Below, in pieces: positions 15,102 through 61,703 of a stretch of 64,000 nucleotides of DNA. Under the pieces are notes generated by a model that saw nothing but the letters and a program-made list of their open reading frames with translations, made no database searches and was not told the DNA's origin. Source of the stretch: a bacterium D16-76 (lineage in GTDB: Bacteria > Bacillota > Clostridia > Oscillospirales > Acutalibacteraceae); NCBI GenBank assembly GCA_009917445.1, contig QZEE01000002.1:1-64000 (forward strand), given 5' to 3'. Each line of letters starts with the position of its first letter. The first letter of the stretch is position 1. The position numbers and the translations under genes were made by a program.

Positions 15102-15131
15102 TTGACTCTTCTATATGTATGATGCTATAAT
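15102..15131 (+). promoter_or_regulatory. Promoter of the integrase gene
   Basis: TTGACT (15102-15107), 18-bp spacer, TATAAT (15126-15131). Confidence 0.75.
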
Positions 15132-15165
15132 ACATACTGAAGTACGATCAAGGAGGGATAATGTT

Positions 15166-16449
15166 ATGGGAAAGATAATGACATCTTTTAACGAGAAACA
15201 AAACGGCAGTCGTAGTTGGGGATATAGATTTGAAGTTGCTTCCGAACAAGGTCAGAGAAGATGGATAAGAAAAAGAGGGTTTAGCACAAAAGCTGAGGCT
15301 TTGAAGGCTGGTCGTGAGGCTCTTGCACAATACGAAAATACCGGGGAAATCGTAACCCCATCGGAATTATCATTTTCCGATTTTGCTAATATTTGGTTAG
15401 ATAGTATGTCAGGAAGTGTAAAAGAAACTACGTTAAATAACTATAAAAAAAGACTACGCTTATATATTACTCCACATATAGGTTTATACGCCTTAAAATC
15501 TATCAAGAAAAACACTTTAAGAAACCTTTTGAGAAAATTGTATGAAAGTGGATTATCTTATAATACGCTAACAAGCATAAAAGGGATGCTAACAAACTGT
15601 TTTGCTTTCGCTGTAGACGAGCAATATCTTATCCAGTCCCCAGCCAATGGAAAACTAACAATACCAAAAAACGACAACTTTGAAAATGAAAGAATTGTAA
15701 GTACATCTAAGCCCCATGTTTATATACCAAAAGACAAATGGGAACAAATCATTGAAAGGTTTCCAGAAGGGCATCCATCGCATATACCATTGATGCTTGG
15801 ATATAAATGTGGGATGAGATTAGGAGAAGTTTTCGCTTTACAGTGGAAAAATATAGACCTAGACAGCAATACAATTATTATAGAAAGCCAAGTACAATGG
15901 CATAAAAACGAGCGACCTAAGAAAGAACGAAATAACCCTAATAAACGTAACACAACAGAAGAAAGCGGGTTTTGGTATATTTCTAAGCCAAAATACAATT
16001 CTTCAAGAAAGATTACAATCGACCAGGATCTTTCAGACTTACTTCGGCGCAAAAAAGAAAACCAGGAAAATTCGGCTAAATATTACGATGATCTATATAC
16101 GTACTATAAAGTGGATGCTCGTGGCATCATATCTATCGGTCAAGGCGATACAAGTAATACTTTAGATTTGGTAAATGTTAGAGAAAATGGAACTTTTGTC
16201 AGCCCTCGCACTATGCAACACACAAGTTCCATTATCCATCACAAAATGGAATATCCTGAGTTTGACTTTCATAGTCTTAGACATACACATGCAACTATAC
16301 TTGCTGAAAATGGTGCATCGCCTATGTATGTACAGCATCGCCTTGGTCACAAAAATATAAGTGTAACAATAGGCGTATATTTCCATTATACAGAGCATTT
16401 CGACCAAACTGGTAATGAGTTGCTAGAAGAAATATTTAGTGAAACGTAA
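15166..16449 (+). CDS. int: Tyrosine-family phage integrase
   Basis: The 427-residue recombinase has an N-terminal arm-binding domain (SWGYRFEV, WIRKRGFSTKAEA), a SAM-like core-binding domain around 80-190, and the catalytic domain. The tetrad is visible as R in GMRLGEVFALQW, H-x-x-R in HSLRHTHAT, and Tyr in the GVYFHYTEHF region after GHKNIS. It integrates and excises the prophage at the adjacent site. ATG 15166 follows AAGGAGGG. It is the only gene besides the 70-codon one at 59.9 kb that reads on the plus strand within the prophage. Confidence 0.93.
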   Translation: MGKIMTSFNEKQNGSRSWGYRFEVASEQGQRRWIRKRGFSTKAEALKAGREALAQYENTGEIVTPSELSFSDFANIWLDSMSGSVKETTLNNYKKRLRLYITPHIGLYALKSIKKNTLRNLLRKLYESGLSYNTLTSIKGMLTNCFAFAVDEQYLIQSPANGKLTIPKNDNFENERIVSTSKPHVYIPKDKWEQIIERFPEGHPSHIPLMLGYKCGMRLGEVFALQWKNIDLDSNTIIIESQVQWHKNERPKKERNNPNKRNTTEESGFWYISKPKYNSSRKITIDQDLSDLLRRKKENQENSAKYYDDLYTYYKVDARGIISIGQGDTSNTLDLVNVRENGTFVSPRTMQHTSSIIHHKMEYPEFDFHSLRHTHATILAENGASPMYVQHRLGHKNISVTIGVYFHYTEHFDQTGNELLEEIFSET

Positions 16450-17431: not shown

Positions 17432-17758
17432 TTATATAGCTGGACTATCTTTAGATCCGCTATCCATTTCGGCATAATTGTTAATCTTTGCAGATTCATA
17501 TGTTATACCGCCCTCTTTGTGATCAGACTTAGCCATGTTGAGATAAAATGAACAAATCGTACCGTGTGAAGTCCATGGTAAGCCTACCATAGCAGAAACC
17601 CATGGTAGGCTACCAGTATATCCCTTTAAAATACAAAGTGTTGCTAGAAAGATACCTCCAAGAGTTACCGCCCATAGCAACCACCGCACATCAGATATTA
17701 ACTGTTTAGAATAATCTCTTTTCTTATGGCTAGTCTTTTTTCTCAAATGAGAAGCCAT
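17432..17758 (-). CDS. Small membrane protein of the lysis module
   Basis: 108 residues with a basic N-terminus and one or two hydrophobic segments (WLLWAVTLGGIFLATLCIL; SLPWVSAMVGLPWTSHG). Its start overlaps the stop of the amidase gene by one base, so the two are translated together. It may be a holin-like or antiholin-like partner; I do not recognise a family. Confidence 0.6.
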   Translation of the reverse strand: MASHLRKKTSHKKRDYSKQLISDVRWLLWAVTLGGIFLATLCILKGYTGSLPWVSAMVGLPWTSHGTICSFYLNMAKSDHKEGGITYESAKINNYAEMDSGSKDSPAI

Positions 17759-18753
17759 TAGATTACCTCCATCATCTTGGCAAAACGATACAAAACAGTA
17801 ACTAACTGTTCACGAGTCATAAGGTCTTCCCACATTCCGTTAAACTCTCCAGAGGTGCTGCCTTTAATCAGCCCAGAGTCAACAGCCCACTTTCGTGCCT
17901 CTTCGCTATAGGCACTAGCATCATTATCACGCCACTGCTGGCGCATTTCGTTGAAGAACTTATTAAATTGTTTACCATCCATGATTTCTTCCTCCTTTGT
18001 CGCTGGATCTTTGGCAGATGCAATTTTATTGATATAGTCTAGGCATACCCAACCTTCACCAGTGAAGCCCCAGTTGCCATCTTCTTTAGAGATAATCACT
18101 ACCGTACCATCGGGATATGTCTTGATAACATTTCCATTTATTGGGCTTGTCCTACAATTCAATCCATCATCTGCATTAACCTGGCCTTGATATGGTTTGA
18201 ATGGCCCAGCGGGTACACCGCTCAGTTTTTGATTCACTTCTTTCGCTAACTGTCCAAGCCTACTATATGTAAAATCACCTGGACACGATTTATTGTCAAA
18301 CCAACGATGCGCAGTTAGCACCATTTCGTCAGATTTAGGGCGATAAGCTAAAGTTGTTGACTTATCGCCAAGCCACAGAAGTTTCTTCTTTCCGTTGCGC
18401 TGGCAAATATCTGTACACAGATTTACAAGAGACTTCCACACGTTGGCGTTGAATGCATAAGGATGGAAAGAATCACTGGCACACTCAATGGTAATTGCCC
18501 TATCATCATTATCCCAATTAGATGTACACCAAGAATGATCAATCTCATCTACAATAGTTCCAATCCTTCCATCAGTACCAATACCATAGTTACAACTGGC
18601 CTCCTTGCCAGAACTATAGAAGAAGTCGCAAAGCCATTCAACAGAAGTTTGTCCCACAACACAATGTGGTGTAATCCTCTCAATAGCATGGGATTTGCGA
18701 CCACCTTGCATTGGGCTTATTTTACGCATACAGCTAAGAGAACTGTTGCTCAT
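17758..18753 (-). CDS. Endolysin: N-acetylmuramoyl-L-alanine amidase
   Basis: The 331-residue protein begins with an Amidase_2/PGRP domain (residues 20-165). The zinc ligands are visible as H30 in ITPHCVVG and His/Cys in ALTAHRWFDNKSCPGD; NYGIGTDGRIGTIV and RAITIECASD are typical. An SH3-like domain with DGLNCRTSPI follows (about 190-245). The C-terminus (EEARKWAVDSGLIKGS... TREQLVTVLYRF) resembles an S-layer-homology motif. It cleaves the stem-peptide amide bond of peptidoglycan for lysis. Confidence 0.9.
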   Translation of the reverse strand: MSNSSLSCMRKISPMQGGRKSHAIERITPHCVVGQTSVEWLCDFFYSSGKEASCNYGIGTDGRIGTIVDEIDHSWCTSNWDNDDRAITIECASDSFHPYAFNANVWKSLVNLCTDICQRNGKKKLLWLGDKSTTLAYRPKSDEMVLTAHRWFDNKSCPGDFTYSRLGQLAKEVNQKLSGVPAGPFKPYQGQVNADDGLNCRTSPINGNVIKTYPDGTVVIISKEDGNWGFTGEGWVCLDYINKIASAKDPATKEEEIMDGKQFNKFFNEMRQQWRDNDASAYSEEARKWAVDSGLIKGSTSGEFNGMWEDLMTREQLVTVLYRFAKMMEVI

Positions 18754-20139: not shown

Positions 20140-20424
20140 TTATACCTCCAACGCTGCTGCGATAAGTTCATTTAAACGTGAATTTATCACCTTAGTTTTA
20201 TCAACACTTCGATTATGCCTGTTGATAACATACCAATCATAGCAGTTACCTTCCATATCTTCGTCCGATTTATCTTTTCTGACAACATAAAACGAATCGT
20301 GAATTGTACAGTCTGGATATTCCGTTACCACAGACTGAAATCCTTCTAGGTCTGTATGCTTATCGCCTTTGGTTCGTAGAACTTCTTCTCCGATAAGCTC
20401 GTTTGTTCCAAAAATGTACTCCAA
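20140..20424 (-). CDS. Small acidic protein overlapping the RT gene end
   Basis: 94 residues starting at a TTG (20424) that follows AAGGAG by eight bases. It overlaps the last 79 bp of the reverse transcriptase gene in another frame. The sequence has a segment HDSFYVVRKDKSDEDMEGNCYDWYVINRHN that looks like a small beta-rich domain. It lacks the basic four-helix character of DGR Avd proteins. Its position next to the RT makes it a candidate accessory gene, without direct evidence. Confidence 0.6.
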   Translation of the reverse strand: MEYIFGTNELIGEEVLRTKGDKHTDLEGFQSVVTEYPDCTIHDSFYVVRKDKSDEDMEGNCYDWYVINRHNRSVDKTKVINSRLNELIAAALEV

Positions 20425-21491
20425 AGCAATCTCTCCTTCCGTGAATTTATTCGGATAACATTCTTCAAGTCTTTTAACACACCTTTCTTAATTCGTTTCT
20501 TAAATATGTTGTAGTGATTGCAATGTGTTAATTGACCGATTTGTGATATTACGCCAGCCGCCCATCTTGGTTGTATATGACGGTTAAGCCTCTTCTTCGT
20601 GTAATACATACTCAGTTTCCTTTTAATTCTTAATAAGTTTCTCTTTCTAAGTAATGTAAAACCGCGCCCATACCTATAACCTAGAGCAGATGGCATACGA
20701 GATGCAACAGGAAATATTTGCCAATTTGATTTTAGGTTTAACTCTTTCTTGTTTAGCCAGTCTTCCATAGCCTTTAGTAATTTTCTTAATTTTCTCTTGT
20801 TGCTCCCAAATATCGTAAAATTGTCCATATACCTAATATAATGCGTTACTCCAAAGCCACCCTCTCTTATTAGATGATCTAAGGGTTGCAAAACAGTATT
20901 CGCAAACCATTGTGATGTATAAACTCCAATTTGAATACCATTCTGAGTAATACGCTCAATTAGATCTATGACACGTCTATCTTTTATCAACTCTTTCATC
21001 CTGTTATGAACATATATAGGTTTTATGCTATCATAAAAATGGTGTATATCTGCTTCTAAGCAATACTTTGTACCACGAACATCTGTTTCCATCCATTTTT
21101 CTATAGCTTTCATCCCATAGTGTATTCCTCGCTTACGAATACTTCCACAACAATATTTATCCATTCCTCGCATTAAAACAGGCTCGATTACTTGAATAAG
21201 CGCATGATGCACATATTGATCAGGCCATAATGCGGGTTCGCATATATCTCGGTATTTACAAGCCGACCTATCCCATCTCCTTTTCTTTTCAACGGGCGTT
21301 GGGATAAATCCATCCACAATAATTTTTCGCAATTCAACAACTCTAGCAGACATGTTTTGTTCTACCCAAGCTACTGTTTTATTAGGCTTATGTCTTGGCA
21401 ACCATCTATGGGTCTTATTGACCTCAACCAATGCAAACATTAAGTTCTCATCGGAAATCAATTTTTCAAAAATATTGTTCATTCTCTTCAT
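20346..21491 (-). CDS. DGR reverse transcriptase (YMDN variant)
   Basis: The 381-residue RT copies the template RNA into mutagenised cDNA that replaces the variable repeat. Motif A is CLEADIHHFYDS with Asp148. Residues 188-194 read IGVYTSQ, the IGxxxSQ motif that distinguishes DGR RTs from retron and group II intron RTs. The catalytic box is Y221-M-D223-N224, with Asn where YxDD is expected. The C-terminal thumb is basic (RKRNLLRIKRKLSMYYTKKR). The ATG at 21491 follows GGAGGAG by nine bases. TR lies 174 bp upstream of the start, and the target gene lies beyond that. Confidence 0.93.
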   Translation of the reverse strand: MKRMNNIFEKLISDENLMFALVEVNKTHRWLPRHKPNKTVAWVEQNMSARVVELRKIIVDGFIPTPVEKKRRWDRSACKYRDICEPALWPDQYVHHALIQVIEPVLMRGMDKYCCGSIRKRGIHYGMKAIEKWMETDVRGTKYCLEADIHHFYDSIKPIYVHNRMKELIKDRRVIDLIERITQNGIQIGVYTSQWFANTVLQPLDHLIREGGFGVTHYIRYMDNFTIFGSNKRKLRKLLKAMEDWLNKKELNLKSNWQIFPVASRMPSALGYRYGRGFTLLRKRNLLRIKRKLSMYYTKKRLNRHIQPRWAAGVISQIGQLTHCNHYNIFKKRIKKGVLKDLKNVIRINSRKERLLWSTFLEQTSLSEKKFYEPKAISIQT

Positions 21492-21664
21492 TATAGGGTG
21501 CTCCTCCTTAAAGCCTCGTGATGTTTCCTTCGCTCCGAAGAGAGTACTAAACCACGCCCTATCAGCTAATCTTCACCAAGGGGTGTGCGAATGCCTGCGC
21601 CATATAGAAAGAGCGGAGTACTCTAACTACTCTGATAATGTTAGCCAAACTAAATACTTAGGAT
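21492..21664 (-). ncRNA. DGR spacer RNA between TR and RT
   Basis: A 173-nt non-coding stretch directly follows the TR on the minus strand. It contains inverted repeats such as AGAGTACT / AGTACTCT and CTCCG / CGGAG. In the Bordetella phage DGR the equivalent segment is part of the RNA needed to start cDNA synthesis. The structure here is inferred from pairing only. Confidence 0.6.
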
Positions 21665-21798
21665 GCGACAGCCGATGTTGTCGTTAGCGTTAGAAGCCCT
21701 GTTGTAGTTCACGTAGAACAAACCGTGATTACGGTTCTGGTTATAGTTACCCCCAACGTGCAGACAAGGGTTGGAAGCGTTGAAGTTCCAGTTATCCG
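21665..21798 (-). ncRNA. DGR template repeat (TR)
   Basis: The 134-bp segment matches the variable repeat at 22,020-22,153 base for base, except at 16 sites. At 15 of them the template (minus-strand) base is adenine. Read in the target frame it has many AAC codons (N-W-N-F-N-A-S-N-P...). Downstream on the minus strand lies the spacer RNA and then the RT. The flank 21,799-21,960 has a further small hairpin (GCTTCCT / AGGAAGC). Confidence 0.95.
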
Positions 21799-21964
21799 CG
21801 AAACACATACGAAACCCGACTGCTGCGCAAGCAATCCCAAAAACTGATATCGAAAAGCTTCCTCAATCCCAGGGTGGTAATTAAGGAAGCACGTTTTAAC
21901 TATATTTTTAAAAATGTAGATAATTTATTTGAGTATCAAACTACTTTCATATAATAAACTAGCT

Positions 21965-21992
21965 TGTGGGGAAAGTTGACACTCTCCCCACA
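21965..21992. other. DGR target hairpin/cruciform
   Basis: A 12-bp inverted repeat (TGTGGGGAAAGT and ACTCTCCCCACA, one wobble) with a 4-base loop lies 10 bp past the stop of the target gene and 27 bp past the VR. No T-run follows it on the minus strand, so it is not a standard terminator. Size and position fit the DNA hairpin that DGRs use for target recognition. Confidence 0.75.
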
Positions 21993-22001
21993 CCCCTCTC
22001 A

Positions 22002-24887
22002 TCAGGGTAATTTTTGGAGGCGACAGCCGATGTTGCCGTAAGCGTAAGAAGCCCTGTCGTAGTACACGCAGAACAAACCGAGATTACGGTTCTGGCCATA
22101 GTTACCCCCAACGCACAGACAAGGGTAGGAAGCGAAGAAGCTCCAGTAATCCGGTATATAAGTCTGGTCACTGCCACTAGAAGCAGAAGGCACAAACATT
22201 GGGAATCCTCCCGCCGTAACTACATTTAATGCAGACGGATATCCGCTAGTAAGTGTACCAGCTACTGTACCATTAGCATTATCGCTAAACTGATTTGGAT
22301 TCAAAATAATGTTCAGACCGTTGCTATTGTAATAACAACCATCCATCCAGTCATATACATTATCCCATAGACCCTCAATCCAACGATACTGAGTATACCC
22401 CCATGTAGTACGATTTGCAGCAGTAGTTCCAGTATGATAAGACATTGAGTCCGTTTTGCCGTTGTTTTCTTTTGAGCCACCGGCGGAACATCCAAATCCA
22501 ATCTTCCCCTGGCTCTCCCAATCAGCAAATTCCACGATATACAAAAGCCAAATAGTAAACCTCATTGCAAAATCGCTTTGCCATATGGTTGTACCCAAAT
22601 TGTGAATAGCAGTACGTGCATTGGCACGAGTTACATTGCAAGCCTGGGCAACATTAGTTGTAGACTTATAAGTGCTTGTGGCACAATGATACCTACCGAT
22701 ATATACAAAGTCACGCTCACCCTTACCATCGCCCCGGTTCATATGTGCAGGCGAAACAGAGAAACCATCATTTGCACCATCGGAAATCTGAATCTTTAAT
22801 TTATTTCCGCTCTTGGTAAGCTTGTACCAGAACTTTGGAATTTTAACTAGAGTACCAGCAGCACTGTCTGTTTCCTTTACCATCCCACTCCATGGCATTA
22901 AATTGTCGAATGGGGAACTACCAGCACCATTTCCAATAGCTGGCACAGGATCTGTAAATCTAGCAGCAGCATCAGTTCTAGTTAGCTTAGTTGTACTAGT
23001 TCCATCCCATTCAACACCATAGATAGTAGTAAGTTTTGCTGTCACAGCACATGTTTTATTTTCTGGCGCAAGATGATTTGTTCCTTCAGCGACCTTAATT
23101 GTAATTGTCGCACTTCCCGTACCCTTGCCAGTAACAGTAACAACATTGCCATTGACACTTACAGTCGCAACACCTGTATTGCTTGATGTTGCAGAGATTA
23201 CACCATCACCAGTACGTGTTACAGTAATTGTCGTGTTAGGGGAGGCCGCAGTAAGCGAAACGCTTGTCTTGTTGATACTAAGACTTCCAGCGGCTTTACC
23301 AATAGTCCAGGCCACAGTTTTTGCAGTTGTAGACCCATCGCTCCATTTGTAGTTTGAGCCTGGTGTAAATGTGGCATTATAACTACCAGCATTTGTGCCA
23401 ACTGTTATGCCACCAATGGTCATTTTCGATGTATCATAATTGCTCCAACTTGGACTCTGTTCTGCACCAGAATAAGTAAGCGATCCGCTCTGACTTGGCA
23501 CATTTGCAATCACAGCTTTCTGGATTGTCCAGCTAACAGTTTGCTCAGAAGAAGCACCATCGCTCCACTTATAATTTTCTGTAGGCGTAAACTTAGTGTC
23601 ATAACTACCAGCATTTGTGCCTTTAACAATACCAGCCATGGTCATTTTTGCACTATCATAACCATTCCAGCTTGGAGATAACTCATTGCCGTTATATGTC
23701 AAAGTGCCACTTTGTGTAGGAACAGAAATAGTCGCTTTGTCAATCTTCCAGGTGACAGTTTTGGAAGTAACCGACATATCGTCCCAACAGAAATCTTCAG
23801 TAGGAGTAAATGTTGCACTATATGTTCCAGCATCCGTTGCTTTAACAACCCCACCAATAGTTAATTTAGTAGGATCGTAATTATTCCATGCCGCATTTTG
23901 TTCAGCACCCGTATATGACAAAGTACCATCTTGACTTGGTACTGTTGTAATAACTGTCTTATTTGGAACGGCAGTAATATGGCCTGCTGGATTTGAATTA
24001 ACCATTCCATCTGTTGAAATAGGGAACAGCGCAAAATAATACGTTGTCCCATTAGTAAGCCCAGCTACTTCCAATGGCGTTGTTTGATGTGCGTTTCTGG
24101 TCGTGCTGTTCAGTGCCAAAGTTCCATCCTCTGGGGATGTAGGGTAACTCCCTTCCTTATACACTACCTTTGTACTCCCCCAGGTTGACACAGTAATGCC
24201 ATCTTCTACGATTGTAGCCGCAGGATCAGTCCATGTAAGACTAATTCTCCCGTTTAGCTGAGAAGCTACACTAAGCGCTGATACATTTCCTGTTGGTACT
24301 GCATTGGGAGTTTCTGTAAACTCATTTGCGGTATCGTCAGTATACATCTTCGTGGTCGTATATGGGAAAAACTTATAGAAATATTTTGTCCCATCAGATA
24401 ATCCAGTATCGCAAAAATACTGGTCTTTGTAAGCATTTCGTGTCTTGCTATCCACGACAACCGTACCATCGCGCCTGCTACTAGGCACAGAGCCAGCCTT
24501 ACGAACTAGTAGCGTTCCAGCCCACTTAGATAGCACGGTTTCACCGATAGCAATATCCTCTGGGTCTGTCCACTTAACATATACTTTCCCAGAGCTTGTA
24601 ATTGTAGTAATATCTGTCACTGCGGCTAGTGGTGTTCCACCGCCACCCCCACCAGATGTAATTTCTTCCCACTGTTCTGTTTCTGGGTTATACCCCTCTA
24701 ATGCTTCTTCGGCAGGATTATAGCGCATACCATGAACGCCATCTTCTGAAACTAGCAATGCAGAAAAATGATCCTCAGCACTAGTTCCATCTTTGCTTTT
24801 GACTTGATCCGCCGATGTTTCCTGATATACAATATGGTATTGCCCGTCATCGCCCTTAATGCGCTTTCTTGTTTTATATATTGACAC
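22002..24887 (-). CDS. DGR target: Ig-rich phage surface protein with C-type-lectin/FGE-like variable domain
   Basis: 961 residues. The N-terminus (1-85) looks like a tail-attachment region and ends in a poly-Gly linker. Two fibronectin-like domains follow (about 90-310). Then come three tandem ~75-residue repeats that share VPSQ-GTLSY-G-EQ...NYD..K(L/M)T and FTP...WSDG motifs (about 312-540), and a BIG2-like domain (about 545-620). The C-terminal ~340 residues have the DGR-type lectin/formylglycine-enzyme fold (WLLYIVEFADWESQG, NVYDWMDGCYY, GCRLQKLP). The VR is residues 912-956. It probably binds a host surface receptor at the tail tip; variation would alter specificity. Confidence 0.92.
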   Translation of the reverse strand: MSIYKTRKRIKGDDGQYHIVYQETSADQVKSKDGTSAEDHFSALLVSEDGVHGMRYNPAEEALEGYNPETEQWEEITSGGGGGGTPLAAVTDITTITSSGKVYVKWTDPEDIAIGETVLSKWAGTLLVRKAGSVPSSRRDGTVVVDSKTRNAYKDQYFCDTGLSDGTKYFYKFFPYTTTKMYTDDTANEFTETPNAVPTGNVSALSVASQLNGRISLTWTDPAATIVEDGITVSTWGSTKVVYKEGSYPTSPEDGTLALNSTTRNAHQTTPLEVAGLTNGTTYYFALFPISTDGMVNSNPAGHITAVPNKTVITTVPSQDGTLSYTGAEQNAAWNNYDPTKLTIGGVVKATDAGTYSATFTPTEDFCWDDMSVTSKTVTWKIDKATISVPTQSGTLTYNGNELSPSWNGYDSAKMTMAGIVKGTNAGSYDTKFTPTENYKWSDGASSEQTVSWTIQKAVIANVPSQSGSLTYSGAEQSPSWSNYDTSKMTIGGITVGTNAGSYNATFTPGSNYKWSDGSTTAKTVAWTIGKAAGSLSINKTSVSLTAASPNTTITVTRTGDGVISATSSNTGVATVSVNGNVVTVTGKGTGSATITIKVAEGTNHLAPENKTCAVTAKLTTIYGVEWDGTSTTKLTRTDAAARFTDPVPAIGNGAGSSPFDNLMPWSGMVKETDSAAGTLVKIPKFWYKLTKSGNKLKIQISDGANDGFSVSPAHMNRGDGKGERDFVYIGRYHCATSTYKSTTNVAQACNVTRANARTAIHNLGTTIWQSDFAMRFTIWLLYIVEFADWESQGKIGFGCSAGGSKENNGKTDSMSYHTGTTAANRTTWGYTQYRWIEGLWDNVYDWMDGCYYNSNGLNIILNPNQFSDNANGTVAGTLTSGYPSALNVVTAGGFPMFVPSASSGSDQTYIPDYWSFFASYPCLCVGGNYGQNRNLGLFCVYYDRASYAYGNIGCRLQKLP
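22020..22153 (-). repeat. DGR variable repeat (VR)
   Basis: 134 bp inside the 3' end of the target gene. Compared with the TR, 15 adenines have changed to G or T, and one C to T. The changes cluster at first and second codon positions, mostly of AAC codons, giving residues such as Y, S, F, G, D in VR where TR would encode N. The 3' end (coding sense) is the GC-rich AACATCGGCTGTCGC stretch, the likely start of mutagenic homology. Confidence 0.95.
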
Positions 24888-58184: not shown

Positions 58185-58307
58185 ATATATGACAGGCTTA
58201 ACGTACCTGTAGGCTATTGCTTTTGAGACAAAATGTCAACGTAGCTTTTTAAGTCGCGTATTCATACGGACAGTACCATAACTAAGGAATGCTGATTTAA
58301 CAGTGGA

Positions 58308-58380
58308 GGCTCCGGTGAGACTCGAACCCACGACATACAGCTTAACAGGCTGCCGTTCTAACCATCTGGACTACAGAGCC
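58308..58380 (-). tRNA. tRNA-Asn (anticodon GTT)
   Basis: Acceptor GGCTCTG/CGGAGCC, anticodon arm GCAGC CTGTTAA GCTGT, T-loop TTCGAGT. CCA not encoded. The gaps 58,185-58,307 and 58,381-58,496 hold only small hairpins. Confidence 0.93.
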
Positions 58381-58496
58381 ATATATTTAGCCAGCCTCCG
58401 AAAAAGTGTGTGTATACCCACTACAGTTTTATTGTATTTGTTTGTAGATGATCAATTTACAACCCTCATACAATAACATACTGAACTGGCCTTTTT

Positions 58497-58572
58497 TGGT
58501 GCGCCCAGAGGGACTTGAACCCTCGACCTACCGCTTAAAAGGCGGTTACTCTACCAACTGAGTTATAGGCAC
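58497..58572 (-). tRNA. tRNA-Lys (anticodon TTT)
   Basis: Anticodon arm ACCGC CTTTTAA GCGGT, T-loop TTCAAGT, encoded CCA. The spacer 58,573-58,760 has a GGCATAC/GTATGCC hairpin at 58,579-58,620 and no gene. Confidence 0.95.
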
Positions 58573-58760
58573 ATATTTGGCATACTTTTTCAGACTCTCG
58601 AAGTTCCGTTGAGGTATGCCAGCCCGCCGCGCTCCTGATCGGCTGTGCCGCTTTGCTTACAGCGTTTAGGTTTGCTATCGTGTTTCCTACGCCAGATTTT
58701 CACTGGAGGGTGCGACCCCATATCTCTAAATATTTAGAAATCCACATTTTAAATTTAAAC

Positions 58761-59144
58761 TTAATCCTCGCTAGTCGGTAAAAAATGAGGATTTTCTGGA
58801 TAAAACAAGATATTTCCAGATTTGATTGTGCCACAATATGAACACCACTCATATGGCCCAATATGTTTAAAATGATGCTTACCTTCAACACACAATTTTT
58901 GCTTTGCTAAAGCTTCATCGCATCTTTTTATTGATTCTTCTCTTTTGGAAATTGAGAATAAACCCCAAGGGTTTTTGTCTGATCCTATTTCATTTGGATC
59001 ACAATCCCACTCATACCCATCTACTGGATATAATTCGTCTAGTGATTCCACCTTCTCAAATAACGCTAGTTGCGATTTATAAACATCATCTAAGACATCC
59101 TGGATTGAAGGATATTTTTGCAACACTTCTTCCCATATACTCAT
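58761..59144 (-). CDS. Hypothetical zinc-ribbon protein inside the tRNA array
   Basis: 127 residues. It is acidic and ends with CVEGKHHFKHIGPYEWCSYC, a likely C/H zinc site (C-x-x-C with upstream Cys and His). It lies in the same orientation as the tRNAs and would be carried on the same transcript. I do not recognise a family. Confidence 0.65.
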   Translation of the reverse strand: MSIWEEVLQKYPSIQDVLDDVYKSQLALFEKVESLDELYPVDGYEWDCDPNEIGSDKNPWGLFSISKREESIKRCDEALAKQKLCVEGKHHFKHIGPYEWCSYCGTIKSGNILFYPENPHFLPTSED

Positions 59145-59171
59145 AATACATCTCCTATTACAAAAGTAGAA

Positions 59172-59258
59172 TGGTAGGGAATATAGGATTTGAACCTATT
59201 AAGCCCGAAGGCAACAGATTTACAGTCTGCCGCAGCTCTCCAACTCTGCCGATTCCCT
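59172..59258 (-). tRNA. tRNA-Tyr (anticodon GTA)
   Basis: Class II tRNA with long variable arm (TTGCCTTCGGGC region), anticodon loop CTGTAAA, T-loop TTCAAAT, encoded CCA. Confidence 0.95.
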
Positions 59259-59263
59259 ATATA

Positions 59264-59351
59264 TGGAGCGGGAGGTAACGGAGTCAAACCGTTTCTCTAT
59301 AGATATGGAGCATATGACATACCTACAGTGTTTTGCGTAAACTATCCCGCT
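59264..59351 (-). ncRNA. tRNA-like element with extended central stem
   Basis: Acceptor-like stem AGCGGGA/TCCCGCT (7 bp), a short GTTT/AAAC hairpin in the D-arm position, a T-arm-like hairpin (AACGG TTTGACT CCGTT), and CCA after the stem. The central arm is an 11-bp stem, CTGTAGGTATG/CATATCTATAG, with a 10-nt loop TCATATGCTC, twice the normal anticodon stem. Both wobble pairs are G-U only on the minus strand. It abuts tRNA-Ser by one base. Not a standard tRNA. Confidence 0.6.
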
Positions 59352-59438
59352 GGCGATGGAGGTAGGATTTGAACCCACGGAGCATTACGCCCTCCTGTTT
59401 TCAAGACAGGTGCATTAGACCAACTCTGCCACTCCACC
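59351..59438 (-). tRNA. tRNA-Ser (anticodon TGA)
   Basis: Class II tRNA: acceptor GGTGGAG/CTCCATC, anticodon arm CCTGT CTTGAAA ACAGG, long variable arm, encoded GCCA end. Confidence 0.95.
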
Positions 59439-59441
59439 ATA

Positions 59442-59627
59442 TTATTCATCCCAAGGTATTTTATCTTCTAAATCAAACGGCAAACTTGCAACCGCACATT
59501 TAGCAAAACCACCCTTTACCTTGTGCCATAATGTAAACTTCTTTCTTTCTGGATTCTGGGATATAACATACTCATCACCAGATACAGTTCTACATGTCAT
59601 CAATGGGCCAGATTCAGATGATGGCAA
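59442..59627 (-). CDS. Small protein within the tRNA array
   Basis: About 61 residues from a TTG at 59627; a slightly upstream non-ATG start after AGAGGAT is possible. The sequence (TCRTVSGDEYVISQNPERKKFTLW) looks like a small beta-rich phage protein. It lies between tRNA-Ser and tRNA-Glu in the same orientation. Not recognised. Confidence 0.45.
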   Translation of the reverse strand: MPSSESGPLMTCRTVSGDEYVISQNPERKKFTLWHKVKGGFAKCAVASLPFDLEDKIPWDE

Positions 59628-59686
59628 CTTTCTAATAATTTTATCCTCTATGATTTTTCACTCCATTTACATATTTGTGTTAATAT

Positions 59687-59762
59687 TGGTGACACCAGCG
59701 GGATTTGAACCCACACTCTCCGACTTGAAAGGACGGCGGCTTAACCATTCGCCTATGGTGCC
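59687..59762 (-). tRNA. tRNA-Glu (anticodon TTC)
   Basis: Acceptor GGCACCA/TGGTGTC, anticodon loop CTTTCAA on stem CCGTC/GTCGG with a U-U mismatch, T-loop TTCAAAT, encoded CCA. Confidence 0.92.
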
Positions 59763-59765
59763 ATA

Positions 59766-59856
59766 TGGATGGGGTGACTGGATTTGAACCAGCGTGCGAA
59801 CACTGCTGTTCTTGTCAGAGTCAAAGTCTGATGCCTTACCACTTGGCGACACCCCA
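59766..59856 (-). tRNA. tRNA-Gln (anticodon TTG) with long variable arm
   Basis: Core matches normal tRNA-Gln (TGGGGTG/CACCCCA, anticodon arm TCAGA CTTTGAC TCTGA), and CCA is encoded. The variable region is 21 nt and contains a 5-bp hairpin GAACA GCAG TGTTC, a class II feature never expected in tRNA-Gln. Length 91 nt. Confidence 0.85.
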
Positions 59857-59869
59857 ATATAAAATTATC

Positions 59870-59898
59870 TTGCAAAAGATGGTGTTATGTGATATAAT
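59870..59898 (+). promoter_or_regulatory. Plus-strand promoter inside the tRNA array
   Basis: TTGCAA (59870-59875), 17-bp spacer, TATAAT (59893-59898). It drives the 70-codon gene that follows. Confidence 0.8.
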
Positions 59899-59933
59899 AA
59901 CCACACAATATTTATCTCTTGGAGGTACATCAA

Positions 59934-60146
59934 ATGAGCGAAGAAGTAAAGGCCACAAAAAGAGCAAAACGCACAACTGAACAACGCATTCAAGACCAAA
60001 TTGATAAAATTGATGTAAAAATTGCCGAGCTTCAAAAGAAAAAGGAGGAACTGCTTAAACCATTAAAAGCAAAAGAGTTGATAGAAAAAGCAGCAACTTC
60101 TATGTCGCTTGAAGAACTCGCAGAAAAACTTGGTATAGACCTCTAA
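59934..60146 (+). CDS. Small coiled-coil protein on the opposite strand
   Basis: 70 residues starting MSEEVKATKRAKRTTEQR, with a long charged coiled coil (KIDVKIAELQKKKEELL) and a C-terminal helix-turn (SMSLEELAEKLGIDL) that could be a short HTH-like module. It has a consensus promoter, a GGAGG ribosome site, and its own terminator. The gene reads against the tRNA operon, so it might be expressed in the lysogen. Function unknown. Confidence 0.75.
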   Translation: MSEEVKATKRAKRTTEQRIQDQIDKIDVKIAELQKKKEELLKPLKAKELIEKAATSMSLEELAEKLGIDL

Positions 60147-60153
60147 TCGCATC

Positions 60154-60177
60154 GCCTCGCCTTTTGGTGGGGCTTTG
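60154..60177 (+). terminator. Terminator of the opposite-strand gene
   Basis: Stem GCCTCGCC / GGTGGGGC with two G-T pairs, loop TTTT, then TTT. Confidence 0.65.
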
Positions 60178-60262
<85 letters not shown>

Positions 60263-60265
60263 ATT

Positions 60266-60341
60266 TGGAGTGAGAAACGGGACTTGAACCCGCAACATCC
60301 GACTTGGAAGGACGGCGCTCTACCAGTTGAGCTATTCTCAC
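60266..60341 (-). tRNA. tRNA-Gly (anticodon TCC)
   Basis: Acceptor GTGAGAA/TTCTCAC, anticodon loop CTTCCAA on stem CCGTC/GTCGG with a U-U mismatch, encoded CCA. The spacer 60,342-60,478 has small hairpins only. Confidence 0.93.
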
Positions 60342-60481
60342 ATATAACCAGCTTACAGCGCTGGTCGTGCTGCCAACTCTCCGCTGTTTGGGCGCGGCGG
60401 TTTCATCGAAAACCTGCTAAACTTCATCGCTGCCAGATTGCGAAGGTTTCTATTCTACATAATTATTATGTAGTGGGCATG

Positions 60482-60552
60482 GGGGCGGAGGCGGGAATCG
60501 AACCCGCATCTACAGCTTATGAGGCTGTCAAGGCACCTTTCCTCTACTCCGC
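60482..60552 (-). tRNA. tRNA-Met (anticodon CAT)
   Basis: Anticodon arm ACAGC CTCATAA GCTGT and T-arm GCGGG TTCGATT CCCGC. Acceptor AGCGGAG/CTCCGCC has an A1-C72 mismatch, as in initiator tRNAs. Could also be a lysidine-modified Ile tRNA. Exact 3' end is uncertain. Confidence 0.85.
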
Positions 60553-60706
60553 TATAAGTAGCCAAAAAAAGGCTACGAGAGTGATGCTGTTTTTCATTTT
60601 CATTATGAGTGAAGTATATTGCTGTAAGCATCACATATGGGACACATTTTAAGAATGATATTTTAACAGAATATTCCTTAAAGTATGTTTGCTGTAAGTG
60701 TCCCCA

Positions 60707-60782
60707 TGGTCTGAGTGGCGAGGCTCGAACTCACGGCCTCTGCATCCCAAATGCAGCGCTCTACCGACTGAGCTACACCCAG
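60707..60782 (-). tRNA. tRNA-Pro (anticodon TGG)
   Basis: Acceptor CTGGGTG/CACTCAG, anticodon loop TTTGGGA, T-loop TTCGAGC, encoded CCA. A 9-bp hairpin (ATCGCCTAA/TTAGGCGAT) lies just upstream at 60,787-60,822. Confidence 0.95.
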
Positions 60783-61036
60783 ATGTATCGCCTAACAAGT
60801 CAACAATGAAATATTAGGCGATGTGTTTTTACTGCGTAAGATGATTTTTTCACCGGATAGCCTATTTTGTGCATTGATAATTTGCCGCTTGTCATACAAC
60901 TATACACATTGTACCGCCTAAGCTAACCAGCGGAGCTACGTTTTTTGGCAGGAATGATAGCTCGGCACCACGCAGTCATAGAATAAAACCACTCAAGCAA
61001 ATCTCTCCTTGCAAAGTATTTTAGTACGTCCTAGCA

Positions 61037-61613
61037 CTTAATCTTTAAATCATATTTATGGCTGGATCTTCACCCTACCTCCATTACCTTCCTTATTATT
61101 CTGCCACTGGGGAGATAAGTCTGAGCTTCGGGGAGCGACCCCTAACTTCTTACCCCGACACATATTGTGTCAAACCCACACAAGAATGTTTACTTGCAAA
61201 TTTCACCGACCATTCAGAATTACTATTTTAATCATTATATAATAGATTCATCTAAATTGTCATACGGCTACTTTAACCAGCGACTTTCGCTATAGTCAGA
61301 TTTCTCCAACATCAAGACAGAGCGCATTATCGGTTTTACCTCCGTCATAGCGGCTACCACACCACTACCCCATAGGCTTATTCTCCACTGGAGCGTCTAT
61401 TGTTGCGCCCGAAAGCTCTGTGCATTATAAGACGATAACTCTTGGCGATATACGTTTTTGTTGGTAGTTTCTACCTTCCTAATGTATATCACTATACACT
61501 AGCAGCCATCCACCAAAGTATCCTTTGGATTCAAACTGAAAGTACCGCACACCTCGGAGTGCTGGTAACACTTTGTTCACCGAGTTAGCCATAAACATGA
61601 TTTAAAGATTAAG
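61037..61613 (-). ncRNA. Large structured RNA, ROOL-like (alternatively GOLLD)
   Basis: A 577-nt region without coding capacity is closed by a 27-bp helix: 61,037-61,063 pairs with 61,587-61,613 with one wobble that is G-U only on the minus strand. Many internal hairpins occur (CCAAAG/CTTTGG, GACACA/TGTGTC, GGTAG/CTACC, CTCGG/CCGAG). It sits inside a phage tRNA operon between tRNA-Thr and tRNA-Pro. Size near 580 nt and phage/tRNA context match ROOL RNAs; GOLLD RNAs are longer. Assignment needs a covariance search. Confidence 0.65.
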
Positions 61614-61630
61614 TTGTCAAAGATCATTGA

Positions 61631-61703
61631 AGCTGGCGAAGGGATTTGAACCCATGGCATACGCATTACAGGTGCGTTGCTCTACCAACTGAGCTACGCC
61701 AGC
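61631..61703 (-). tRNA. tRNA-Thr (anticodon TGT)
   Basis: Acceptor GCTGGCG/CGCCAGC, anticodon arm ACGCA CCTGTAA TGCGT, T-loop TTCAAAT. First tRNA of the operon; CCA not encoded. Confidence 0.95.

What the first reader, a model, noticed from the sequence alone, without database searches (positions are those of the whole stretch)
20346..24887. Diversity-generating retroelement in an SPbeta-like prophage
TR (21,665-21,798) and VR (22,020-22,153) are each 134 bp and differ at 16 positions, of which 15 are adenines in the template sense. The TR is full of AAC codons, the RT has the DGR-type IGxxxSQ motif, and the VR is at the extreme C-terminus of a lectin/FGE-like protein. Together this is the hallmark of a DGR. 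Its target is a tail-module surface protein, so it should let the phage change its host receptor.
Basis: partly seen in the sequence, partly recalled or inferred. Interest (0 to 1): 0.85.

Follow-up and report, generated by a model that had tools for sequence, protein, structure and literature searches.

The report
Phage mutation device with altered enzyme
A gut-bacterial prophage carries a device that rewrites the end of one of its tail proteins, and its copying enzyme belongs to a branch with a changed catalytic motif whose errors at adenine rarely give cytosine.

Summary
The diversity-generating retroelement (DGR) is real: a 141-bp TR/VR pair with 16 of 18 differences at template adenines (P 8e-9), VR at the end of a tail-protein gene, then a stem-loop, TR and RT, in a prophage with an SPbeta-like terminase. 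The "lectin/FGE" fold was not confirmed. (2) Relatives are active: six locus pairs share a TR while their VRs differ at 98 sites, 94 of them template adenines. (3) Adenine changes in the clade are almost all A->G and A->T; A->C is 39 of 1189, against 538 of 2856 in YxDD DGRs and 87 of 185 in a neighbouring YMDD clade. Serine codon choice and shared targets favour an enzyme bias over selection. (4) The TR-RT spacer is Rfam's RT-18 RNA; a model of it matches 93 of 93 clade loci and 0 of 63 loci of the Avd-type group. YxDN arose once in this sample, so motif and lineage cannot be separated. New variant of a known kind.

The parts
20346..21491 (-). DGR reverse transcriptase, 381 aa, IGVYTSQ, catalytic motif YMDN
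   Evidence: PDB relative 8ub7, E 3e-20
20820..20822 (-). codon of Asn224, in the place of the second Asp of YxDD
   Evidence: invariant in 25 of 25 aligned clade RTs
21504..21585 (-). RT-18 RNA (RF03021) between TR and RT
   Evidence: 76.8 bits, gathering 41.3; covariation
21658..21798 (-). template repeat (TR)
21965..21992 (-). stem-loop, 12-bp stem and 4-nt loop, starting 9 bases past the stop codon of the target gene
22013..22153 (-). variable repeat (VR)
22002..24887 (-). target gene, 961 aa, tail protein (PHROG 5302 over residues 671-959)

Best explanation
This is a phage DGR, active at least in its relatives. The TR is transcribed together with a structured 3' domain (RT-18 RNA); the RT binds that RNA, copies the TR with errors at adenines, and the cDNA replaces the VR at the stem-loop-marked end of the tail-protein gene. 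The RT belongs to a clade whose catalytic YxDD has become YxDN and whose errors opposite template A are nearly all insertions of dC or dA (A->G, A->T), rarely dG (A->C). Without A->C an AAC codon can reach 9 residues (N, S, I, D, G, V, Y, C, F) instead of 15. Shown by computation: the parts, the clade, natural A-specific VR variation in relatives, the spectrum, the RNA family. Inferred: transcription and RNA binding, priming and homing steps, that the bias lies in the enzyme, and that the Asn contributes to it.
For: TR/VR statistics. YxDN in the window and its close relatives; one clade, support 100/100 in a tree without the motif columns. Same-TR pairs: 94 of 98 VR differences at template A. 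Spectrum: A->C 39/1189 in 93 YxDN pairs, 538/2856 in 257 YxDD pairs; by RT cluster (70% identity) mean share 0.034 in 42 YxDN clusters, P 3e-14 against 86 YxDD clusters. Serine reached from AAY, TCY:AGY, is 3:202 in YxDN, 27:3 in the L004 clade and 19:65, 11:23, 14:25 in three other YxDD groups, while clade target genes upstream of the VR use both kinds (1351 TCC/TCT, 1944 AGC/AGT). Forty YxDD loci with homologous targets have A->C 0.237. RT-18: Rfam in the window and 17 of 17 clade loci tested; own model 93 of 93; 117 both-sided pair changes against 41.4 shuffled. Stem-loop after the VR in 75 of 92 clade loci, after the TR in 4 of 92, in 8 of 460 shuffles.
Against: A single origin of YxDN, so motif and lineage are confounded. 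6 of 86 YxDD clusters also have an A->C share of 5% or less, and 11 of 42 YxDN clusters exceed 5%. The serine test shows no difference from the Avd-type Q10 group (1:78), whose A->C share is nevertheless 0.129. For BPP-1 bRT (YMDD) dG opposite A is itself only 2.4% when A follows on the 3' side (passages of PMC12875486), like the clade's 26 of 920 template adenines; the contrast with bRT is in A-before-C alone. VRs in genomes have passed selection, and selection is visible: AAY->TGY (Cys) is 1 of 871. Four-fold degenerate third positions gave only 8 changes in the clade, 1 of them A->C: no neutral test. Helix 2 of RT-18 pairs in only 67% of cells. No reads of the window's own phage; no structure prediction.
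Confidence: 0.85

Rival explanations
1. An ordinary DGR whose missing A->C reflects selection on the tail protein (His, Thr, Ala, Pro, Arg, Leu disfavoured) and not the enzyme.
For: VRs are seen after selection; Cys codons are nearly absent among AAY products in the clade, 1 of 871.
Against: Ser as TCY is rare while Ser as AGY is common (3 against 202); 40 YxDD loci with homologous targets keep 0.237; both contexts, A before A and A before C, are depleted against YxDD.
Confidence: 0.15
2. The bias is an enzyme trait of the lineage, but caused by other residues or by the RNA; the Asp-to-Asn change is a neutral passenger.
For: One origin only; 6 of 86 YxDD clusters are as low; spectra also differ strongly among YxDD groups, 0.129 to 0.470 by pooled share for groups of 15 loci or more.
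Against: None direct; the second catalytic Asp lies in the active site by alignment with bRT, and Asn is kept in all 25 clade RTs aligned.
Confidence: 0.45
3. The YMDN RT is defective and the window's VR is a relic of earlier activity.
For: YMDD>SMAA is used as an inactive bRT control in PMC12875486 (figure legend passage); the window has no close strain to compare with (L003 already differs at 15 TR sites).
Against: Six same-TR pairs in the clade with fresh A-specific VR differences; Asn kept across the clade.
Confidence: 0.03

Closest known systems
BPP-1 DGR of a Bordetella phage (bRT, Avd, Mtd; RT structure 8ub7)
   Same: A-specific TR/VR changes, homologous RT (E 3e-20) with the SQ motif, stem-loop after the VR (a stem-loop deletion is among the mutants in PMC12875486)
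   Different: YMDD there, YMDN here; Avd there, no bAvd match in the window's genome or in 23 clade records (the 14 control genomes gave none either, but 7 of 7 Q10-type records did); bRT inserts dG opposite A before C at 26.8% (unselected cDNA in E. coli), the clade shows A->C at 8 of 1341 such template adenines (genomes)
DGRs of Clostridia phages with YxDD RTs (for example Butyrivibrio phage Arawn, RT 32% identical)
   Same: Order VR-TR-RT, homologous target ends in 40 of 51 Q49-type loci, RT-18-like RNA in 25 of 31 Q49 and 57 matches over 58 Q169 loci
   Different: YxDD; A->C share 0.18-0.22
Rfam RT-18 RNA (RF03021)
   Same: Full-length match above the gathering score
   Different: Rfam's entry as printed names it only 'RT-18 RNA, sRNA gene'; here it is placed between TR and RT of a DGR
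DGRs surveyed by DiGReF (PMC3521204, passages)
   Same: SQ-motif RTs, A-specific changes, C the rarest product
   Different: That survey found both aspartates 100% conserved and argued against a strong enzymatic bias

Membership tests
Diversity-generating retroelement | TR/VR pair differing at template adenines | tested here: met
   16 of 18 differences, P 8e-9
Diversity-generating retroelement | RT of the DGR type next to the TR, with the SQ motif | tested here: met
   IGVYTSQ; PHROG 1423; matches bRT 8ub7
Diversity-generating retroelement | YxDD catalytic motif (100% conserved in PMC3521204) | tested here: not met
   YMDN in the window; motif ends in DN in 156 of 515 sources, copies included. 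Since these RTs have A-specific TR/VR pairs and vary in nature, I read this as a variant, not as an exclusion.
Diversity-generating retroelement | VR varies at template A while TR is constant | tested here: met
   In clade relatives: 94 of 98 differences in six same-TR pairs. For the window's own phage not testable with the tools.
Diversity-generating retroelement | Accessory protein Avd (present in many, not all) | tested here: inconclusive
   No match in own genome or 23 clade records; the family scores below its cut-off even in the 7 positive records
Diversity-generating retroelement | C-type lectin fold of the variable domain | tested here: inconclusive
   No Pfam or PDB sequence match; structure prediction was off
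Rfam RT-18 RNA | Covariance-model score above gathering | tested here: met
   76.8 against 41.3 bits
SPbeta-like phage | Related packaging genes | tested here: met
   Terminase 38% over 93% to SPbeta-type phages
SPbeta-like phage | Serine recombinase as integrase (recalled for SPbeta) | tested here: not met
   PF00589 tyrosine type

The most novel reading that the evidence does not exclude
The Asp-to-Asn change in the catalytic motif is a natural switch of error type: it leaves the RT promiscuous at template A for dC and dA but shuts out dG, giving a DGR with a reduced amino-acid alphabet, and RT-18 RNA plays the scaffold role that Avd has elsewhere.
Probability: 0.3. Interest if true: 0.75.

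Novelty: new variant of a known kind. Interest (0 to 1): 0.55.

Why it matters
A large clade of reverse transcriptases, with signs of recent activity, does without the second catalytic aspartate that the DiGReF survey found invariant in DGRs. DGR lineages also differ in which wrong base they insert, from 3% to 47% A->C, so how DGR RTs misread adenine can be tested by comparing natural enzymes. And an Rfam RNA known here only by a number gets a place, and probably a role, in DGRs.

Tried and rejected
Further VRs or targets in the genome: none found. A dead RT: disfavoured by the same-TR pairs. Target-family selection as the sole cause of the spectrum: disfavoured. Four-fold degenerate adenines as a neutral test: too few (8 changes in the clade). 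Literature: 'diversity-generating retroelement' + YMDN, 0 papers; 'reverse transcriptase' + YMDN + motif, 0; with YxDD, YADD, YMDD, YxDN, 21 papers of which 20 listed, YxDN in none of those listed; with YxDN or second aspartate, 0; spectrum searches; RT-18 (RT-18 in none of the 9 listed, 0 papers). Passages only were seen of PMC12875486, PMC8144416, PMC3521204, PMC6642488 and PMC11792537. Two papers that could hold prior statements (Wu 2018, gkx1150, and Weinberg 2017, gkx699; both recalled) are not held, so priority for YxDN and for the RT-18 link is not established.

Weak points of the counts: L003 and L024 are one locus and both stand among the 93. The best pair of L129 lies downstream of its RT and may belong to another element; it was kept (6 of its 24 changes are A->C). 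Group names (Q49, Q38, Q10, Q169, Q04) mean the best-matching query RT and are not taxa; membership shifted between because queries were added. Viral-contig scans kept the best 80 loci when more matched, so this is a sample. Trees held 34 of 82 and 18 of 91 YxDN rows.

Full report
Observation. The repeat pair is real. In those 134 bp the adenine changes are 8 A->T, 7 A->G and no A->C; the one A->C lies in the last seven bases. The VR ends 8 bases before the stop of a 961-aa ORF (22002-24887) whose residues 671-959 match PHROG 5302, tail protein. The RT (20346-21491) follows the TR. The genome has no other copy of TR/VR.

Setting. The window is contig C72, bases 1-64000, of a 3.78-Mb genome in 148 contigs. 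SpoIID, citrate synthase and glucuronate isomerase genes lie to the left, then come a tyrosine integrase (15115-16449), an amidase (17758-18753), the DGR, Dit and tail genes, portal, terminase and eleven tRNA genes. The terminase is 38% identical to SPbeta-type phages over 93% of its length; the best match is an unannotated 176-kb faecal phage at 45%. 'SPbeta-like prophage' is fair for packaging; other genes were not compared with SPbeta.

The motif. The close RT relatives found first, L003, L031-L033 and L047, all have YMDN. A scan of one genome per species (22 loci) and seven scans of viral contigs, with the loci, gave 515 sources; the RT motif ended in DN in 156, in DD in 356, and was other or unread in 3 (copies included). 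In trees built without the motif columns the DN rows form one clade (34 of 34 rows, SH-aLRT 100; 18 of 18 rows, 100/100) nested among YxDD RTs. The Asn is invariant in 25 aligned clade RTs. [quoted passage not shown]

Activity. Six pairs of clade loci have 97.6-100% identical RT DNA, no TR differences over the aligned part (65-143 bases), and VRs that differ at 13, 15, 21, 10, 16 and 23 sites, of which 13, 14, 20, 9, 16 and 22 are template adenines: 94 of 98. Against that, four pairs from different contigs had identical TRs and identical VRs (L086/L087, L130/L131, L133/L134, L148/L152); the remaining identical pairs were copies of one locus. The window's nearest kin, L003, already differs from it at 15 TR sites, and 16 of 29 VR differences fall on shared template adenines.

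Spectrum. Of 515 sources, 350 TR/VR pairs remained after 99 without a pair, 64 duplicates and 2 without a readable motif were dropped. With the last 25 bases left out, A->C is 39 of 1189 adenine changes in 93 YxDN pairs and 538 of 2856 in 257 YxDD pairs; for A before A 26/534 against 262/1274, for A before C 8/581 against 111/861. Of 92 YxDN loci with at least six changes 64 have none. By RT cluster at 70% identity the mean share is 0.034 in 42 YxDN clusters; the means of YxDD groups run from 0.085 to 0.48 (P 3e-14 for 42 against 86 clusters), but 6 of 86 YxDD clusters are also at or under 5%, and 11 of 42 YxDN clusters are above it. The first, smaller round gave 37/1071 against 382/2251. The other extreme is the L004 clade, YMDD: 87/185 A->C and 17/185 A->G. 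So DGR lineages have their own error spectra, against what DiGReF's authors concluded.

Enzyme or selection? Serine can be reached from AAY as AGY or TCY. YxDN loci show 202 AGY and 3 TCY, the L004 clade 3 and 27, groups Q169, Q49 and Q38 65/19, 23/11 and 25/14; the Q10 group, 78/1, is no different from YxDN. Clade target genes upstream of the VR use 1351 TCC/TCT and 1944 AGC/AGT codons. Forty of 51 Q49-type loci (grouping) have target ends homologous to the clade's at E<1e-5, and their A->C share is 0.237. I take the bias as mainly enzymatic. Selection is visible too: AAY->TGY (Cys) is 1 of 871. For comparison, unselected BPP-1 bRT cDNA in E. coli has dG opposite A at 26.8% before C but only 2.4% before A (PMC12875486, passages); the clade's genomes have A->C at 8 of 1341 template adenines before C and 26 of 920 before A, YxDD loci 111 of 1809 and 262 of 1925. 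The two kinds of data are not on one scale; against bRT only the A-before-C context stands out.

The RNA. The TR-RT spacer aligned with covarying helices and Rfam named it: window 21504-21585 is RT-18 RNA, RF03021, 76.8 bits, gathering 41.3. At the gathering score RT-18 lies just upstream of the RT in 17 of 17 clade loci and in 10 of 18 YxDD loci, all ten of the Q169 type; 0 of 4 of the L004 clade and 0 of 4 of Q49. RT-17 was found in 5 of 18 further loci, all among the nine of the Q38 type. Over 28 sequences (27 distinct) 20 pairs show 117 both-sided changes against 41.4 in shuffles and 84.6% of cells paired, slid versions at most 44.3%; helix 2 is weak at 67%. A model from these (R1) gave 93 matches over 93 YxDN loci (18 of which it was built from), 57 over 58 Q169 loci (10 built from), 25 of 31 Q49, 6 of 15 of the L004 clade, 8 of 85 Q38 and 0 of 63 Q10 loci at E 0.01, with rough E-values and many of the Q49, L004-clade and Q38 matches weak. 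bAvd-like proteins were found in 7 of 7 Q10-type records, all below the curated cut-off, in 0 of 20 other YxDD records and 0 of 23 YxDN records. RT-18 and bAvd were not seen together in this sample. My inference is that RT-18 is the 3' domain of the template RNA that the RT holds where there is no Avd.

Stem-loop. A strong hairpin follows the VR but not the TR: score 20 or more in 75 of 92 clade loci, 4 of 92 after the TR, 8 of 460 shuffles. In the window it has a 12-bp stem and a 4-nt loop (21965-21992), nine bases past the stop. This fits the stem-loop behind the VR of BPP-1 (recalled; a stem-loop deletion is among the mutants of PMC12875486).

Verdict. The finding is a correct call of a known kind of system. 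What deserves a specialist's time is the clade it belongs to: the YxDN motif, the near loss of A->C, and the RT-18 link. Motif and lineage are confounded by a single origin, and prior statements in two papers not held here cannot be excluded.

Noticed in passing
L004, L439-L455: YMDD DGR clade with the opposite spectrum: 87 of 185 adenine changes are A->C and 17 A->G, over 15 loci.
   Followed up: partly
L125:3072-4145, L126:534-1607: DGR RT with TSI in place of TSQ (SQ motif lost) and YVDN, yet the two share a TR and their VRs differ at 13 sites, all template A.
   Followed up: partly
window TR position 39 (21760) and 17 further clade rows: Of 29 non-adenine changes in the clade 18 are C->T, 17 of these at a C followed by A, mostly at two recurring CAC sites; unexplained, perhaps selection for aromatic residues (L003 and L024 are one locus).
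   Followed up: partly
clade VRs, AAY codons: Cys (TGY) is almost never reached from AAY, 1 of 871, although T at position 1 and G at position 2 are each common.
   Followed up: partly
L002 (G000:C44): A second DGR in the same genome: YMDD RT with its own TR/VR, 15 of 15 changes at A.
   Followed up: no
window 58304-61703: Eleven tRNA genes in a row beside the phage packaging genes.
   Followed up: no
L003 / L024 / L054: The nearest relative, in the same genus, has its RT split between two frames near residue 300.
   Followed up: no
L316, L320, L334, L036, L007: Rfam RT-17 RNA directly upstream of DGR RTs of another, YxDD, group: 5 of 9 tested.
   Followed up: partly
L129:3063-3981: A-specific repeat pair downstream of the RT rather than upstream, with an unusual 6 of 24 A->C.
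   Followed up: no
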